Shown piece by piece: positions 1 through 41,663 of a stretch of 41,663 bases of DNA. The stretch is from Candidatus Cloacimonadota bacterium. GTDB lineage: Bacteria > Cloacimonadota > Cloacimonadia > Cloacimonadales > Cloacimonadaceae. Position 1 is the first letter of the stretch. Each line of letters opens with the position of its first letter. The notes below the pieces were generated by a model, which saw nothing but the letters and a program-made list of their open reading frames with translations, did not search any database and was not told the origin of the DNA. Position numbers and translations under genes: made by a program. The stretch lies in contig JARRCD010000004.1 of assembly GCA_029982875.1 (NCBI GenBank), positions 1 through 41,663 on the forward strand, given 5' to 3'.

Positions 1-3
1 ATA

Positions 4-22
4 CGGTGGCTAAAGCCGACCG
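4..22. repeat. REP-like imperfect palindrome CGGTGGCTAAAGCCGACCG
   Basis: Seen directly; the same sequence or covarying versions recur at 28.76-29.07 kb and 40.82-40.90 kb. A truncated half copy (cggtggctaaag) lies at 74-85. Confidence 0.8.
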
Positions 23-95
23 CCTATCATCTTATCTGCTTATTTGATAATCCCGGATACTCCTTGCATTTGCCGGTGGCTAAAGTTCCTATACT

Positions 96-221
96 TATTT
101 TGAGTTAATCCATCCAGTGCTCCTGCATCATCCTGGATATTTTGAGTTAATCCATCCAGTGCTCCTGCATCATCCTGGATATTTTGAGTTAATCCATCCA
201 GTGCTCCTGCATCATCCTGGT
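96..221. repeat. Three tandem copies of a 42-bp repeat (tattttgagttaatccatccagtgctcctgcatcatcctgga)
   Basis: Copies at 96-137, 138-179 and 180-221 are essentially identical by eye. Confidence 0.95.
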
Positions 222-232
222 AATTTTGCGAT

Positions 233-5768: not shown

Positions 5769-7112
5769 CTAATTGGTCTGCTGGCGCCGATGTGCGGCTA
5801 AGGTTGCGGAATATAGCTGGCGGATCTCTTCGGCAGCTTGTTTCCATTGAATGCGGTTCACTTCGCGCATGCCTTCCAGTCCCATTTTCCGCCTTTTATC
5901 GGGGTTTTCTATCAAGTGATTGATGGTCTCTACCCAGAGGTCTACATCCCAAAAATCTATCTTAAAGGCATGGTTTACCACCTCCGCTACCCCGGATTGT
6001 TTGGAGATGATGGCGGTAATGCCATAGGCCATGGCTTCCAAGGGGCTGATCCCAAAGGGTTCAGAAACTGAGGGTAAAACATATATATCTGCTGCTCGCA
6101 GGATACGTTCTACTTGTTTGCGATTGAGAAATCCGGTAAACAAAAAGCGATTTCTCAGCTTTAACGAAGCAGAGCGGCGCAAGAGTTTCCTGCTCATATC
6201 ACCAGTCCCCGCCATGATGAATCTGGCATCGGGATGAACGGCCAATACCTTTTGTGCCATCTCCAGGAAATAGTCAGGTCCCTTTTGGAGGGTGATTCTG
6301 CCCAAAAACAGGATCACCGGCCCCTTGAAGATGCGTTCCTGGCTCATCACCGCATTTTCGGAAATGGAAAAAGCATTGTGCACGATCCGAATTTTGGCAG
6401 TATCTATGCGATAGCGACTCATGATCATCTGAGCGGTATACTTTGAAACTGCGATGACCAGATCGGCATAGGTCATACCGGCATGCTCGATTTTGTGCAC
6501 CCGTTCATCACCAGGTCCACCAGCTCTATCGAATTCTGTCGCATGGATATGCACCAGTAAAGGCTTTTTGCTGATCTTGCGGGTAATCATCCCCGCGGGA
6601 TAACAAAGCCAATCATGAGCATGAATGAGGTCGTAATCCAGCAATTTGGCAATGCGTTCTGCTCGGAGTGTGAATTCCTGCACCTTTTTGATGAGGTCTT
6701 CTTCCCCGATCAGGTTGTTGGTCAGGTCTTGCCACAATTCTTGTTCCTCAGTCGTCCTTACTTGAGAGAGCCAATACTCCTTTCTGGTAGAAATAGTGAA
6801 GCGTTTGAGATCTGCTACCTGGAAATAGGATTCGGGTCTTTCGCTTATGCCGATGTATTCCAGTCTCTCTCTCATATTGGCAAAGACCTTACTCTCAAAA
6901 ATACTTTGCTTTTTTTGGTCAAAAAATACGGCGGGCAAAGAATCCGCATCGCGTACCTGACGTAAGGGAAAATAGACCATTTCGCGGGTAGGCAACACCA
7001 GATCTATTTGGATGCCAAAGCTCAAAAGAGCTTTCACCATCCCATAGCAAGCCATCCCTAAGCCACCGGAGATCAGAGGTGGAAATTCCCAAGTAAACAT
7101 CAGTATCTTCAT
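5769..7112 (-). CDS. GT4/GT5-like glycosyltransferase (glycogen synthase-like); start trimmed from ORF 7220 to MKILMFTWEFPP
   Basis: MKILMFTWEFPPLISGGLG, HAHDWL, SVSEPFGISPLEAMAYG; trimmed start gives an ATGA overlap with the upstream gene. Confidence 0.9.
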   Translation of the reverse strand: MKILMFTWEFPPLISGGLGMACYGMVKALLSFGIQIDLVLPTREMVYFPLRQVRDADSLPAVFFDQKKQSIFESKVFANMRERLEYIGISERPESYFQVADLKRFTISTRKEYWLSQVRTTEEQELWQDLTNNLIGEEDLIKKVQEFTLRAERIAKLLDYDLIHAHDWLCYPAGMITRKISKKPLLVHIHATEFDRAGGPGDERVHKIEHAGMTYADLVIAVSKYTAQMIMSRYRIDTAKIRIVHNAFSISENAVMSQERIFKGPVILFLGRITLQKGPDYFLEMAQKVLAVHPDARFIMAGTGDMSRKLLRRSASLKLRNRFLFTGFLNRKQVERILRAADIYVLPSVSEPFGISPLEAMAYGITAIISKQSGVAEVVNHAFKIDFWDVDLWVETINHLIENPDKRRKMGLEGMREVNRIQWKQAAEEIRQLYSATLAAHRRQQTN

Positions 7113-9142
7113 AGCTTCACCTCCAGCGAATCGATAAAGCTCTCGATATTGTATAAAGCTGCCACACTCCAGGCCTGAGCGGGTGCACCTTTGGGAAAGT
7201 GGGGATTCTCTCCATCCCATACTTCGGCCACTGAGGCGATGTGACCCCTCATAAAGCCATTACGCAATACCTGCACAAAATCTCCCAAGCTCTCGGCCAA
7301 TTCCTGCTCGGATTTTTCCGTTCCGTAAACCTTGAGATAGAGTCCGCAAAAAGGTCCCAGCAACCAAGCCCACACACTTCCATTGTGATAGCTGAGGTCA
7401 CGTTCTCTCTGAGTTCCGTAATACTTTTTACGAAAGCGGGGATCTTTGGGACTCAGAGTTCTGATTCCATAGAAGGTATAGAGCTCACTGAAGCAGCGTT
7501 GAAAAACTTGTTTCATGATAGCTTTATCCACTATCTGCCAAGGCAGGGATAAGGCAATCAGAACATTAGGGCGCATCTCATTGATAGGCTTATCCCCTTC
7601 CAGGCGATCGGCCAGCTCCGTGCCATTCCAGAATTTGGCAAACGCAGATTTCACCTTATCCTTGAGTTTGAGATACTGCTGCTTGGCCTTGTATGATTTG
7701 GCGGTCCCGCTATATCTTTGGCACATATCTTCATAAGAGGCAAGCGCATTGTACCACAGAGCGTTGATCTCCACCGGAGCTCCCCAGCGGGGGGTGACTG
7801 CTTTGCCATCAATGCGAACGTCCATCCAGGTAGCATGCGCAAAATTCGGTTGCAGCTCGATTAGGCCGTCCTCACGGATATCAAAGGGATGTTCCTTTTG
7901 CGCTAAAAGGGATTTGAAGATATTCTCAGTCAGGTGTATCACTTCTTTCCAATATCCGGGACTCTGCTTTTTCTTCCCCAACTTCCACAGCAGAATGATG
8001 TACCAAAGAGTGGCATCTATGCTATCATAATTTGCCTCTCGGCCCGTTTCCGCAAACATATTGGGAATCAAGCCATCTTTGATATGACGACTGTAATTGC
8101 GGAGGATTTTTTCCACTTTATCAAGGTTATTGGGCGTGTGTAAAAGCGCATTGAGAACCACCATAGTATCTCTGCCCCAGGGACCGTAAAAGGGATAACC
8201 AGCCACGATGTCGTCATCAGTAACAAAATCCAACAAGGCAAATTCCAGAATCTGCAGATAGCTCTTGCGCTCAAAGAGGATATTATCATTATAATCCAGA
8301 CTTGAAAGGAGGCTCCCCTCCGCATTGCTTTGCTTGGGATAATCACAGGCTTTGGGGAGCCCGGCATAGCGGTCGGTGATGCGGGAGATTACTTTTTGAG
8401 GGTCTTCAATCTCAGAGTCTGAAAATAGCAAAGCATTGGATTCGTTCGGAGCCAGATCAAAGCTTACCTGAAAGAGACTGATCTGATCGCCAATGCCCTC
8501 ATATCCGCTCATTACTTCCCAAGGATAATAGACGTTATAATATACATAGCGGTTGGAGATTACTTCCCCGTGCATCACGGCGCAATGAACGGCAAGTCCG
8601 GTATCGGAACGCTGAGCAGAAAAGGTGCTGAATTCCTTATCATTCTTGATATCAGTAAAAAAGTCGAGGTAATCCAGACTTCCGTGGGGATTGATGTCAT
8701 GATGCGAACAGAGCGTATATTTGGGATGAAATTCGAAGTGCAAACGGTGTTGACCCAAATTGGTATATTTCACCATCGTGGTATTTGTCTCTTGGTCCAT
8801 CATGATTTCTTTGAGAATAAGGATCTCATCCTGATGCGGAAGAGCCGAATATAAGAAGCCAGGATATGGCCGCAGCCAGGGTTTTACTAAGTGCAAAAAT
8901 CCCTCTGGATAGATGCAATTGCTATAGTTATTACTATCCAAATGAATGGTTTCGCCTCGCCATTCCACGGTCTCTTCGATCCCTGCCACCAGATGATGGC
9001 GATTGAATTTGCTGTCACTGGAGATTAACAAACCATGATACTTACGCTGATTGATCAAATTTCCAGTTCCCAACGCATAAGCTCCAAACTTGTTCGTTAA
9101 AATCCATTCATGGTGATGGGTCTCCATGAAGTAGTTATTCAT
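7109..9142 (-). CDS. Amylo-alpha-1,6-glucosidase / glycogen debranching enzyme
   Basis: WILTNKFGAYALGTGNLINQRKYHGLL, GYPFYGPWGRDTMV, YHNGSVWAWLLGPF. Confidence 0.92.
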   Translation of the reverse strand: MNNYFMETHHHEWILTNKFGAYALGTGNLINQRKYHGLLISSDSKFNRHHLVAGIEETVEWRGETIHLDSNNYSNCIYPEGFLHLVKPWLRPYPGFLYSALPHQDEILILKEIMMDQETNTTMVKYTNLGQHRLHFEFHPKYTLCSHHDINPHGSLDYLDFFTDIKNDKEFSTFSAQRSDTGLAVHCAVMHGEVISNRYVYYNVYYPWEVMSGYEGIGDQISLFQVSFDLAPNESNALLFSDSEIEDPQKVISRITDRYAGLPKACDYPKQSNAEGSLLSSLDYNDNILFERKSYLQILEFALLDFVTDDDIVAGYPFYGPWGRDTMVVLNALLHTPNNLDKVEKILRNYSRHIKDGLIPNMFAETGREANYDSIDATLWYIILLWKLGKKKQSPGYWKEVIHLTENIFKSLLAQKEHPFDIREDGLIELQPNFAHATWMDVRIDGKAVTPRWGAPVEINALWYNALASYEDMCQRYSGTAKSYKAKQQYLKLKDKVKSAFAKFWNGTELADRLEGDKPINEMRPNVLIALSLPWQIVDKAIMKQVFQRCFSELYTFYGIRTLSPKDPRFRKKYYGTQRERDLSYHNGSVWAWLLGPFCGLYLKVYGTEKSEQELAESLGDFVQVLRNGFMRGHIASVAEVWDGENPHFPKGAPAQAWSVAALYNIESFIDSLEVKL

Positions 9143-9202: not shown

Positions 9203-9208
9203 CGTCAA
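9203..9208 (-). promoter_or_regulatory. Possible -35 (TTGACG) of a promoter for the debranching-enzyme gene
   Basis: TTGACG N17 ATAATT on the minus strand upstream of 9142; eye-only match. Confidence 0.35.
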
Positions 9209-9237
9209 GTTAAATTATCTTTACATGCAGTAAAGTA

Positions 9238-9420
9238 CAACTGAGTCTGTTCAAAAGCACAACCATCTTCAGCTTCCCTGGTTTTCTTGGTGCAAAGCAG
9301 GTCGGCATTCCGTTATCCGTTATCCGTTATCCGTTATGCGTTATCCCCGAGTCCCATCGGGACGGCATATTTATCTGCATAATGCACAATATCTAAAATA
9401 CCGTTCCTCCAGAACTCAGG
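9238..9420 (+). repeat. Composite intergenic repeat, copy 1 (module A 9243-9309, heptamers 9312-9346, module C about 9347-9420)
   Basis: Aligns by eye with the reverse complement of 40921-41274 in the same module order. Confidence 0.85.
9312..9346 (+). repeat. Heptamer array, 5 units (GTTATCC/GTTATGC)
   Basis: gttatcc x3, gttatgc, gttatcc. Confidence 0.9.
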
Positions 9421-9474
9421 CTTGTCAAGTCTGCACTTGGGGTCGATATTTGCGCCCTTCGCATCATCAAACAA

Positions 9475-9519: not shown

Positions 9520-10875
<1,356 letters not shown>

Positions 10876-14389: not shown

Positions 14390-14431
14390 ATTATCCGTTA
14401 TGCGTTATCCGTTATCCGTTATGCGTTATGG
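14390..14431 (+). repeat. Heptamer array, about 6 units (GTTATCC/GTTATGC)
   Basis: attatcc gttatgc gttatcc gttatcc gttatgc gttatgg. Confidence 0.88.
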
Positions 14432-27832: not shown

Positions 27833-28669
27833 TTGACTAAAATGCACAACCCCAAAAATCGTCAATATATTTCTTTTCGGGAGATGGATATGCTTTATGA
27901 TCCCCTCAAAGATCGCATCGCCGGACTTATCAAGGTGTTTCCGGCTTGCCGCCGCCTTTTTTATCTGATGCTTAATTTCCTGCTCTTGCGTCAGCGTTAC
28001 GTCTTTGCTGAAATCCGCCGCTATTTTCGCGATGGTATGCGTTTTTACGATGCCGGGGCCGGATTTTGCCAATACAGCGATTTTGTCCTCAGACACTATC
28101 CCCACGCTCGAGTCTTTGCCACCGATCTGAAAAGTGAATACCTCTCGGATTATAAGGCTGTGGCCGGTTCCAGATTTTTCTATCAAACTGCCGATCTCCA
28201 GGTCTTTTGTCCTCAATACCACTATGACATGGCGATTGCCATTGATATTTTGGAGCATATCCCCGACGATGTAAATGCCATGAAAAATATCTATCAAGCC
28301 CTGGCGCCAGATGGTATCTTGATCATCTCCACGCCAAGTGATCTGGATGAAGCTGCCAAATTTACTGAAGAACACGTTCGCCCCGGATATAACAAACTCG
28401 AGCTGGAAACCAAGCTGACCAAGATCGGCTTCACCATCCTCTCTTCCCGATATAGCTACGGCCACTGGGGAGCTCTAAGCTGGAAACTCCTGATAAAATA
28501 TCCTTTAGCCCTTTGGGCCAAATGTAAGCCTTGCAGTTTGCTTTTACCCTTTTGGTATCTAATTCTATTCCCCTTGGCCCAGCTCTTGATGTGGCTGGAT
28601 ATGAATACCAGGGTTAAGCAAGGCACTGGAATCATTGTGGTAGCTCAGGCGAAAAAGGGTGAGGGGTAG
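27833..28669 (+). CDS. Class I SAM-dependent methyltransferase with hydrophobic C-terminus
   Basis: FYDAGAGFCQYSDFVL, ATDLKSEYL, AIDILEHIPDD. Exact start uncertain. Confidence 0.88.
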   Translation: MTKMHNPKNRQYISFREMDMLYDPLKDRIAGLIKVFPACRRLFYLMLNFLLLRQRYVFAEIRRYFRDGMRFYDAGAGFCQYSDFVLRHYPHARVFATDLKSEYLSDYKAVAGSRFFYQTADLQVFCPQYHYDMAIAIDILEHIPDDVNAMKNIYQALAPDGILIISTPSDLDEAAKFTEEHVRPGYNKLELETKLTKIGFTILSSRYSYGHWGALSWKLLIKYPLALWAKCKPCSLLLPFWYLILFPLAQLLMWLDMNTRVKQGTGIIVVAQAKKGEG

Positions 28670-28740
28670 AGTGGTAGAAGGTAGAGTGGTAGAAGGTAGA
28701 GTGGTAGAAGGTAGAAGGTAGAAGGTAGAGTGGTAGAGCT
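28670..28740 (+). repeat. Short tandem repeat of GGTAGAGT/GGTAGAA units
   Basis: gtagagtggtagaaggtagagtggtagaaggtag... directly visible. Confidence 0.9.
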
Positions 28741-28760
28741 TGGTTAACTACATCTATTGC

Positions 28761-29074
28761 CGGTGGTTAAAACCAACCGGAATTCATCTTGGTCTGCAAT
28801 CCATAATCCGGAGCACGGTGGTTAAAACCACCGCCTATCATCTTACCATATCTCCAGCAATCTGATCCCGTAAATAAGATGATAGACGGTCGGCTTTAGC
28901 CACCGTATCCGAGCGAACAGATCCCGGAGATAAGATGAATTCCGGTCGGCCTGAGCCACCGTATCCCATGCAATATGAACCTGGGAATAAGATGATAGGC
29001 GGTCGGCTTTAGCCACCGTATCCGAGCGAACAGATCCCGGAGATAAGATGAATTCCGGTCGGCTTTAGCAACCG
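28761..29074. repeat. Cluster of six REP-like palindromes (28761-28779, 28816-28833, 28887-28905, 28943-28961, 29000-29018, 29056-29074), including a 113-bp tandem duplication
   Basis: cggtggttaaaaccaccg, cggtcggctttagccaccg and variants; 28887 to 29000 and 28943 to 29056 both offset by 113 bp. Confidence 0.9.
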
Positions 29075-29238
29075 GCAAAAGCAGTAATTATTACACCTGA
29101 TTCCTGCCAAGCCCGGTCCTTACTCATCGCCGCAAGACTTACCCTGCTGTGGGTGGACATTCTTGCCCTCACGGGTTGACGTGATAGAGTGGTAGACTGG
29201 GCGCGAGATAGGGAGTTATGAGGTGTTAGCCCCGCAAT

Positions 29239-29388
29239 CCATAACGCATAACCCAATAACGCATAACGGATAACGGATAACGGATAACTGATAACTGATA
29301 ACGGATAACGCATAACGGCTAACGCATAACCCCATAACGCATAACGCATAACGCATAACCCCATAACGCATAACGCATAACGCATAAC
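29239..29388. repeat. Heptamer array, 21 units (GCATAAC/GGATAAC/TGATAAC, three 8-mers)
   Basis: Hand parse: 18 seven-base and 3 eight-base units filling 150 bp. Confidence 0.93.
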
Positions 29389-29447
29389 AAACTCCTCATA
29401 TCTCCACGCTCTATCCTCAATCTGCATTTCAAGTCTGGTTAAAGTCC

Positions 29448-40823: not shown

Positions 40824-40899
40824 CGGTGACTAAAGTCGACCGGTATTCATCTTATTTACACGTTCTTATTGCATGGAATACGGTGACTAAAGTCGACCG
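40824..40899. repeat. Two REP-like palindromes (40824-40842, 40881-40899), CGGTGACTAAAGTCGACCG
   Basis: Exact pair; stem positions covary relative to the GGCT/AGCC version. Confidence 0.85.
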
Positions 40900-40920
40900 C
40901 CTGTACAGGCAGACACCACC

Positions 40921-41274
40921 CCTGAGTTCCGGAGAAACGGCATTTTAGATCTTATGTATAATGCAGATAAATATGCCGTCCCGCTGGCACTCGGGAATGG
41001 TTGGAGCGTCTTACGTGATGCTATCTAAATGCCGTCCCGCTGTGACTCAACGATAACGCATAACGGATAACCTCTCCTTATAAAAATATCTGTGCAATCC
41101 GTGTAATCTGTGTGAGACCTTCGCTGTGTGTATAACGCATAACGGATAACCCATAAATAATCTGTGAAATCCGTGTAATCTGTGTGAGACCATCGCTATC
41201 TTCAATGTCGACCTGCTTTTCTCCAAGAAAACACGGAAAACGGCTGAAGATGGTTGTGCTTTTTGAACAGTCTC
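40921..41274 (-). repeat. Composite intergenic repeat, copy 2 (module C 40921-about 41048, heptamer/37-mer block 41051-41197, module A 41204-41274)
   Basis: Reverse complement aligns with 9243-9420 in module order. Confidence 0.85.
41089..41197 (+). repeat. Direct repeat of a 37-mer (41089-41125 and 41161-41197), interleaved with heptamers
   Basis: tctgtg(c/a)aatccgtgtaatctgtgtgagacc(t/a)tcgct. Confidence 0.9.
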
Positions 41275-41308: not shown

Positions 41309-41338
41309 TTGACACAAATCTCAAGCCTTCATTATATT
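41309..41338 (+). promoter_or_regulatory. Candidate sigma70-type promoter (TTGACA N18 TATATT) for Sel1 gene
   Basis: ttgaca 41309-41314, tatatt 41333-41338. Confidence 0.6.
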
Positions 41339-41426: not shown

Positions 41427-41663
41427 ATGCGTAGTATGATTGTGGCACTGCTGATAGCAATGCTTGTTATCCCATTGTTTGCAAATGACAGTACTGACAT
41501 TAATAAGTTAATCCATGATGCGTTGAGGGGAAATGCGGAAGCTCAATACATTCTTGGTGTTTGTTATGACATTGGCGAAGGTGTGGATAAGAACCCTAAA
41601 CAAGCTGTGTATTGGTATGAAAAGGCAGCAAATCAAGGAAATGCGGAAGCTCAATACATTCTT
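41427..41663 (+). CDS. Sel1-repeat secreted protein, truncated by window end
   Basis: Own translation MRSMIVALLIAMLVIPLFANDSTDINKLIHDALRGNAEAQYILGVCYDIGEGVDKNPKQAVYWYEKAANQGNAEAQYIL; signal peptide; GGAAGGAG RBS. Confidence 0.88.
   Translation, partial: MRSMIVALLIAMLVIPLFANDSTDINKLIHDALRGNAEAQYILGVCYDIGEGVDKNPKQAVYWYEKAANQGNAEAQYIL

What the first reader, a model, noticed from the sequence alone, without database searches (positions are those of the whole stretch)
9238..9420. Composite intergenic element (A - heptamer array - C) present twice in inverted orientation
Module A (9243-9309), a heptamer array (9312-9346) and module C (about 9347-9420) recur as the reverse complement at 41204-41274, 41051-41157 and 40921-41048, in the same order, about 31 kb apart. 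Flanks match closely (e.g. cgggacggcatatttatctgca; cttcagc...gttttcttgg...aagcaggtcg(g/a)catt) while the centre differs in length and content. No transposase or long ORF lies inside. This looks like a modular non-coding dispersed repeat with a variable heptamer core rather than random low complexity.
Basis: partly seen in the sequence, partly recalled or inferred. Interest (0 to 1): 0.78.

Follow-up and report, generated by a model that had tools for sequence, protein, structure and literature searches.

The report
Promoter-seeking transposon remnants with variable cores
The two matching elements are stripped-down copies of a little-known bacterial jumping gene that lands a fixed 32-34 bases in front of other genes' promoter "-35" box and has filled up with short repeats; promoter-seeking jumping genes are known, but this lineage, its landing distance and the promoter-like box in both of its own ends appear new.

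Summary
A / heptamers / C occurs at 9243-9420 and, inverted, at 40921-41274. Module A is repeated about 40 times in the host genome, a Candidatus Cloacimonadota MAG.

A is not a free-standing repeat. It is the right end (last transposase codons plus terminal repeat GAGACTGTTC) of a ~1.9-kb insertion sequence that is intact in related genomes. Its ~515-aa transposase is Mutator-like but misses the curated IS256, ISLre2 and ISKra4 models. The host genome keeps only transposase-less, MITE-like derivatives: left end (~113 nt), a variable core (REP-like palindromes = C, ATCTGTG units, CCGTTAT heptamers), then right end A. Some copies still have an 8-bp target duplication.

The strongest result: 66 of 83 non-redundant right ends lie 31-35 nt (63 of them 32-34) from CTTGACA, the -35 box of a neighbouring gene, always in one orientation (chance mean 7.7). 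Both window copies fit, at 33 nt. Relatives have the same promoters without the element.

Oriented insertion upstream of promoters is known for TnGBS/ISLre2/ISKra4, at 15-17 bp. Here the distance is double, the transposase lineage differs, and both IS ends carry an inverted subterminal TTGACA. That suggests, without proving, that the transposase itself reads TTGACA. New variant of a known kind.

The parts
9243..9309 (-). Copy 1, right end (module A): terminal repeat GAGTCTGTTC plus the remnant of the transposase C-terminal codons
   Evidence: Homologous to the right ends of intact ISs in same-family genomes; about 40 copies in own genome
9310..9346 (-). Copy 1, CCGTTAT/GCGTTAT heptamer array (core)
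9347..9420 (-). Copy 1, module C: REP-like palindromes GAGTCCC..GGGAC and CCGTTCCTCCAGAACTC (core)
9415..9462 (-). Copy 1, truncated left end (left-end positions 66-113; the tip is lost)
   Evidence: 94% to the left-end consensus, E=1e-14
9203..9209 (-). Target -35 box CTTGACG of the glycogen debranching enzyme gene, 33 nt from the element's end; TTGACG conserved in three same-genus relatives without the element
7109..9142 (-). Gene downstream of copy 1: glycogen debranching enzyme, 677 aa
   Evidence: Pfam GDE_C / GDE_N
9520..10857 (-). Gene on the other side of copy 1: Glu/Leu/Phe/Val dehydrogenase (GdhA type)
   Evidence: Pfam
41195..41274 (+). Copy 2, right end (module A)
   Evidence: 95% to consensus, E=1e-30
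41051..41197 (+). Copy 2, core: two heptamer blocks (41053-41073, 41132-41152) and two ATCTGTG units (41083-41125, 41155-41197)
40921..41048 (+). Copy 2, REP-like palindromes (module C). No left end detected beyond them; CGGTGACTAAAGTCGACCG hairpin repeats follow instead
41309..41314 (+). Target -35 box TTGACA downstream of copy 2, 33 nt after the element's end up to ATTGACA; candidate -10 TATATT at 41333-41338
41427..41663 (+). Start of the gene downstream of copy 2; the repeated 'NAEAQYILG' text looks like Sel1-type repeats (read by eye, not tested); runs off the contig
14395..14429 (.). Heptamer array without an A or left end nearby (shows the core repeats are independent)
29241..29390 (.). 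Longer heptamer array without an A or left end nearby

Best explanation
Both window elements are non-autonomous (MITE-like) derivatives of a Mutator-like insertion sequence of Candidatus Cloacimonadota. The IS inserts in a fixed orientation, right end toward the gene, 32-34 nt upstream of CTTGACA, that is upstream of the -35 box of a working promoter. Shown here: the IS anatomy, the 8-bp duplication in some copies, the fixed distance and orientation, and that the promoters tested exist in relatives without the element. Inferred: the transposase itself reads TTGACA. The same hexamer stands inverted about 80-100 nt inside both IS ends, so one DNA-binding surface could serve end recognition and target choice. 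After insertion the transposase gene was lost or replaced, and the core became a place where heptamers, ATCTGTG units and REP-like palindromes pile up, turn over and probably recombine between copies. The fixed upstream site leaves the promoter core intact, so even copies before purA, polA, fba and tRNA genes are tolerated.
For: IS origin: A-like right ends in 11 of 50 same-family genomes. Intact ORFs of 514-526 aa, Pfam MULE PF10551 and Transposase_mut PF00872, invariant D276, D335, E437 and a C-x2-H motif. Own right end 82% to that of G039 and own left end 75% to that of a G043 IS. Target duplications CTTGATTT and TCCGCCCT in intact ISs (compared by eye) and ATAACCTT in an own 352-bp element. 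About 33 left ends in the own genome and 8 left-right pairs of 135-817 bp. Targeting: 66 of 83 non-redundant right-end flanks have a >=5/7 CTTGACA match at 30-36 nt (31:1, 32:10, 33:32, 34:21, 35:2), against a shuffled mean of 7.7 (maximum 15 in 200 shuffles). TTGAC is 66/64/65/64/66 of 66 and the A-rich block AARAWW lies at -9..-4. The same peak appears separately in own and other genomes, with no peak for the reversed motif. Promoters of gde, purA, por, fba and tRNA-Asn are conserved in same-genus genomes without the element. purA was hit separately in two species, at 33 and 34 nt. Direct-reading idea: exact TTGACA at 95-99 nt inside the left end and 80-91 nt inside the right end in the intact ISs, including 30-34% identical relatives, the right-end copy lying in transposase codons. 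TATAAT (>=4/6) is only modestly enriched, 33/66 against 22/132 in controls.
Against: No transposase is found in the own assembly (92% complete), so mobilisation in trans is inferred. Most own copies have lost the left tip or lack a target duplication. TTGACA in the left end could instead belong to the transposase gene's promoter (no clear -10 seen by eye, not tested statistically). The A-rich block upstream of the target -35 equals an UP-element position and is not seen in the ends, which would fit RNA polymerase recruitment. The structure model was too poor (pLDDT 44) to test a -35-binding fold; HTH hits to sigma region 4 are not significant.
Confidence: 0.85

Rival explanations
1. Same element, but the target is chosen by contact with RNA polymerase, sigma or alpha-CTD bound at the promoter (the model proposed for TnGBS), not by the transposase reading TTGACA.
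For: A-rich block at -46..-41, the UP-element position, and some -10 enrichment in targets; model proposed for TnGBS in PMC3942029; sites lie before transcription starts of housekeeping and tRNA genes.
Against: TTGAC is close to invariant while the -10 is weak, the reverse of what promoter strength would give; the same TTGACA is kept in both IS ends, where no promoter is evident.
Confidence: 0.35
2. Module A is a regulatory site (distal operator or enhancer) of a regulon of about 40 promoters, not a transposon end.
For: Fixed phase relative to the -35 box and high conservation within the genome.
Against: A encodes a transposase C-terminus, has an inverted partner end, target duplications and intact IS relatives; the downstream genes are unrelated; relatives lack A at the same promoters.
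Confidence: 0.04
3. Insertion is random and the fixed distance is what selection left.
For: Insertions in genes would be purged; intergenic survivors are expected.
Against: A 3-nt-wide peak over more than 60 sites in many genomes, and one orientation only; selection is unlikely to resolve single bases.
Confidence: 0.03
4. The whole composite, core included, is one repeat spread by recombination or a REP-type (RAYT) system.
For: C looks like REP palindromes; heptamers and palindromes also occur without ends.
Against: No Y1 transposase in the own genome; ends and core vary independently, e.g. one shared insertion with different cores in G000 and G045.
Confidence: 0.08

Closest known systems
[quoted passage not shown]
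   Same: Mutator-like DDE transposase, 8-9-bp duplications, oriented insertion with the right end toward a sigma-A promoter at a fixed distance upstream of the -35 box
   Different: Distance 15-17 bp there, 32-34 nt here; our transposases do not hit the ISLre2 model even at E<=1; Firmicutes mostly versus Cloacimonadota; a subterminal inverted TTGACA in both ends is not mentioned in the sections of that paper that I read
ISKra4 group (p-MULT 4), PMC3942029
   Same: Insertion upstream of promoters, Mutator-like
   Different: The ISKra4 model gives no match in the genomes that carry our IS nor to our proteins, while a true ISKra4 member in the same phylum scores 226-252 bits
IS256 family (p-MULT 1)
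   Same: Among the best-scoring curated models, 42-52 bits, catalytic half only
   Different: Far below the 150-bit cut-off; IS256 insertion is reported as random (PMC3942029)
BrickBuilt MITE of Porphyromonas gingivalis, PMC4596501
   Same: MITE with leader and tail around a variable tandem-repeat core, always intergenic
   Different: 23-nt repeat; no promoter-distance rule is stated in its abstract; unrelated sequence as far as described
TAACTGA heptamer repeats of Beggiatoaceae, Cyanobacteria and Bacteroidetes, PMC4679880
   Same: Intergenic heptamer arrays of nearly the same unit (here TAACGGA/TAACGCA, some TAACTGA)
   Different: There mostly next to start codons; here inside MITE cores and other intergenic sites
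REP/BIME palindromes with RAYT transposases
   Same: Module C looks like paired inverted palindromes
   Different: No Y1 transposase found in own genome

Membership tests
[quoted passage not shown]
   PF10551 and PF00872; invariant D276, D335, E437 (102 aa apart) and C356/H359 over 6 sequences; criteria. The C-x2-H lies 21 aa after D2, slightly beyond the 11-19 aa stated in the paper
[quoted passage not shown]
   CTTGATTT (L149), TCCGCCCT (L155), ATAACCTT (L096); absent or degraded in many copies
[quoted passage not shown]
   needs an experiment or reads
ISLre2 / TnGBS | Transposase over the ISLre2 model cut-off | tested here: not met
   no ISLre2 hit at E<=1 for 5 transposases
ISLre2 / TnGBS | Oriented insertion 15-17 bp upstream of the -35 box | tested here: not met
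   oriented, but at 32-34 nt
ISKra4 | Transposase over the ISKra4 model cut-off | tested here: not met
IS256 | Transposase over the 150-bit model cut-off | tested here: not met
   41.9-52.1 bits
MITE | Short, no transposase, terminal inverted repeats of an autonomous relative | tested here: met
   8 paired elements of 135-817 bp; autonomous relatives
MITE | Target duplication at copies | tested here: inconclusive
   perfect 8 bp at L096, about 7 bp at L182, near match at L177, none at most others
REP/RAYT | Y1 (PF01797) transposase in the genome | tested here: not met
   assembly 92% complete

The most novel reading that the evidence does not exclude
An unrecognised family of Mutator-like insertion sequences whose transposase carries a -35-box reader: it binds TTGACA in its own two ends and the same hexamer in host promoters, so a transposon has copied the sigma-factor recognition code to find safe sites, about 1.7 helical turns further upstream than TnGBS/ISLre2.
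Probability: 0.4. Interest if true: 0.78.

Novelty: new variant of a known kind. Interest (0 to 1): 0.62.

Why it matters
How bacterial transposons find promoters is an open question; the published model is contact with RNA polymerase. A lineage with a different, precise distance and the target hexamer built into both ends makes the alternative, direct reading of TTGACA, directly testable with purified protein. It also offers a way to map strong promoters and transcription starts in uncultured Cloacimonadota, since each right end points at a -35 box, and it explains a class of intergenic repeats as landing pads for tandem repeats.

Tried and rejected
Rfam scan: only a tRNA in the window. RAYT search for the palindromes: none. 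The 71-aa C-terminal piece alone hits no Pfam or NCBIfam model. Viral contigs and plasmids: no relatives of the transposase. Genome contigs: only Cloacimonadota, a probably misbinned contig and one weak match. PDB by sequence: only a marginal Mutator-family transposase, E=0.25. AlphaFold2 model with 3 sequences: pLDDT 44, not used for a fold search. I first read L182 as an element nested in another element's left end; it lies before a tRNA-Asn promoter. A regulon reading of A was dropped after the IS relatives and empty sites were found.

Full report
Observation. The window is contig C31 of a 2.08-Mb, 135-contig assembly. The transposase of related genomes is found in records named Candidatus Cloacimonadota, so the organism most likely belongs to that phylum. 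The full query has 103 matches in the own genome and an A consensus has 40.

What A is. Searching 50 genomes of the same family with A gave matches in 11. In several of them the sequence continues as an open frame, and translating A backwards gives a C-terminus...NADLLFSKKTRKAA. A 71-aa piece from a relative leads to intact ORFs of 514-524 aa. The protein hits MULE and Mutator transposase models; it has an invariant D, D, E and a C-x2-H motif. It reaches only 42-52 bits on the IS256 model (cut-off 150) and nothing on ISLre2 or ISKra4, while a genuine ISKra4 transposase of the same phylum scores 226 bits in the same scan. It occurs in 16 of 125 phylum genomes, 10 genera.

Anatomy of the IS. Left tip GAGACTGTTCA, a non-coding stretch of roughly 200-400 nt, the ORF, then TTGAACAGTCTC. 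Target duplications of 8 bp: CTTGATTT, TCCGCCCT (compared by eye). In every intact copy examined TTGACA stands 95-99 nt inside the left tip and 80-91 nt inside the right tip, pointing inward. Relatives with only 30-34% protein identity to the first sequence keep it. In the right end it falls in codons for the invariant Cys-Gln of the transposase.

Anatomy in the own genome. There is no transposase. There are about 33 left ends and about 40 right ends, with eight pairs 135-817 bp apart. One, 352 bp, has a perfect 8-bp duplication ATAACCTT. The own left end is 75% identical to that of a G043 IS, the right end 82% to that of G039. Between the ends lies a variable core: palindromic GAGTYCC..GGRAC units (module C), ATCTGTG units, and heptamers. 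One insertion shared by G000 and G045 (identical promoter side and near-identical end) has different cores. Copy 1 of the window keeps part of the left end (9415-9462); copy 2 has none.

Target rule. I took all non-redundant right-end flanks from the fetched loci. Of 83, 66 have a CTTGACA-like 7-mer at 30-36 nt, with the peak at 32 (10), 33 (32) and 34 (21); shuffled flanks give a mean of 7.7 and a maximum of 15. Several of the 17 exceptions are left ends or chance matches to the tip pattern (read by eye). Own and foreign genomes show the peak separately and the reversed motif shows none. Within the 66, TTGAC is almost invariant, an A-rich block lies at the UP-element position, and the -10 is only modestly enriched. 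The 66 were picked with a >=5/7 threshold, which inflates the -35 conservation somewhat, but not the sharpness of the distance. Of 60 sites with enough sequence, 52 have a same-strand ORF start 30-400 nt after the box, against 161 of 400 random positions. Genes hit include purA, polA, por, fba, a polyprenyl synthetase and a tRNA. In same-genus relatives the promoters tested, including the one before copy 1's gene, are conserved without the element. The purA promoter was hit in two species, by an IS-type end at 34 nt and by the MITE at 33 nt.

How it works. Shown: an oriented, distance-measured insertion upstream of pre-existing promoters by a Mutator-like element. Inferred: the measuring device. 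The published idea for TnGBS/ISLre2 is contact with RNA polymerase (PMC3942029). Here the near-invariant TTGAC in targets, the weak -10, and the TTGACA kept in both ends favour a transposase that reads TTGACA itself. The A-rich block and the possibility that the left-end TTGACA is a transposase-gene promoter argue for caution. I put direct reading at about 0.4-0.5 and RNA polymerase recruitment at about 0.35. The core repeats probably accumulate because the interior is under no constraint once the transposase is gone; exchange between copies is inferred from missing target duplications and mosaic cores.

Comparison with the known. Promoter-upstream targeting by Mutator-like elements is known at 15-17 bp (PMC3942029). 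A MITE with a minisatellite core is known (BrickBuilt, PMC4596501). Near-identical heptamers are known in other phyla (PMC4679880). I found no report of this lineage, this distance, or the subterminal TTGACA, but the library searched is open-access only and ISfinder was not available.

Noticed in passing
window 1-35, 28745-29090, 40824-40914: Dispersed hairpin repeats GGTGGCTAAAGCCGACCG / CGGTGACTAAAGTCGACCG with an ATAAGATGATAGGCGGT spacer, another REP-like family; they replace the left end of copy 2.
   Followed up: no
L027, L029, L049, L176, L195 (outer flank of the left ends): Several left ends share the same outer flank (...TTACACTTTTTTTAATAAACCGCATGGAGGTAATAGACCATGCCTTGGAT), so they sit beside or inside another dispersed repeat.
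   Followed up: no
L235 (G043:C13) and L052 (own genome): The purA promoter carries an intact-IS-type end in one species and the MITE in another, at 34 and 33 nt, while five other same-genus genomes have none.
   Followed up: yes
L145: A contig labelled Methylotenera encodes a transposase 100% identical over 340 aa to the Cloacimonadota G011 one; most likely a misbinned contig.
   Followed up: no
L230 (G098:C92): An ISKra4-family transposase beside an IS110-like transposase in another Cloacimonadota genome; used as a positive control for the family models.
   Followed up: partly
window 96-228: 42-bp tandem repeat, 3.2 copies, 97% alike, overlapping an ORF.
   Followed up: no
window 28665-28737: GGTAGAGTGGTAGAA tandem repeat (15-bp unit, 4.9 copies) in an intergenic repeat island that also holds heptamers and hairpins.
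   Followed up: no
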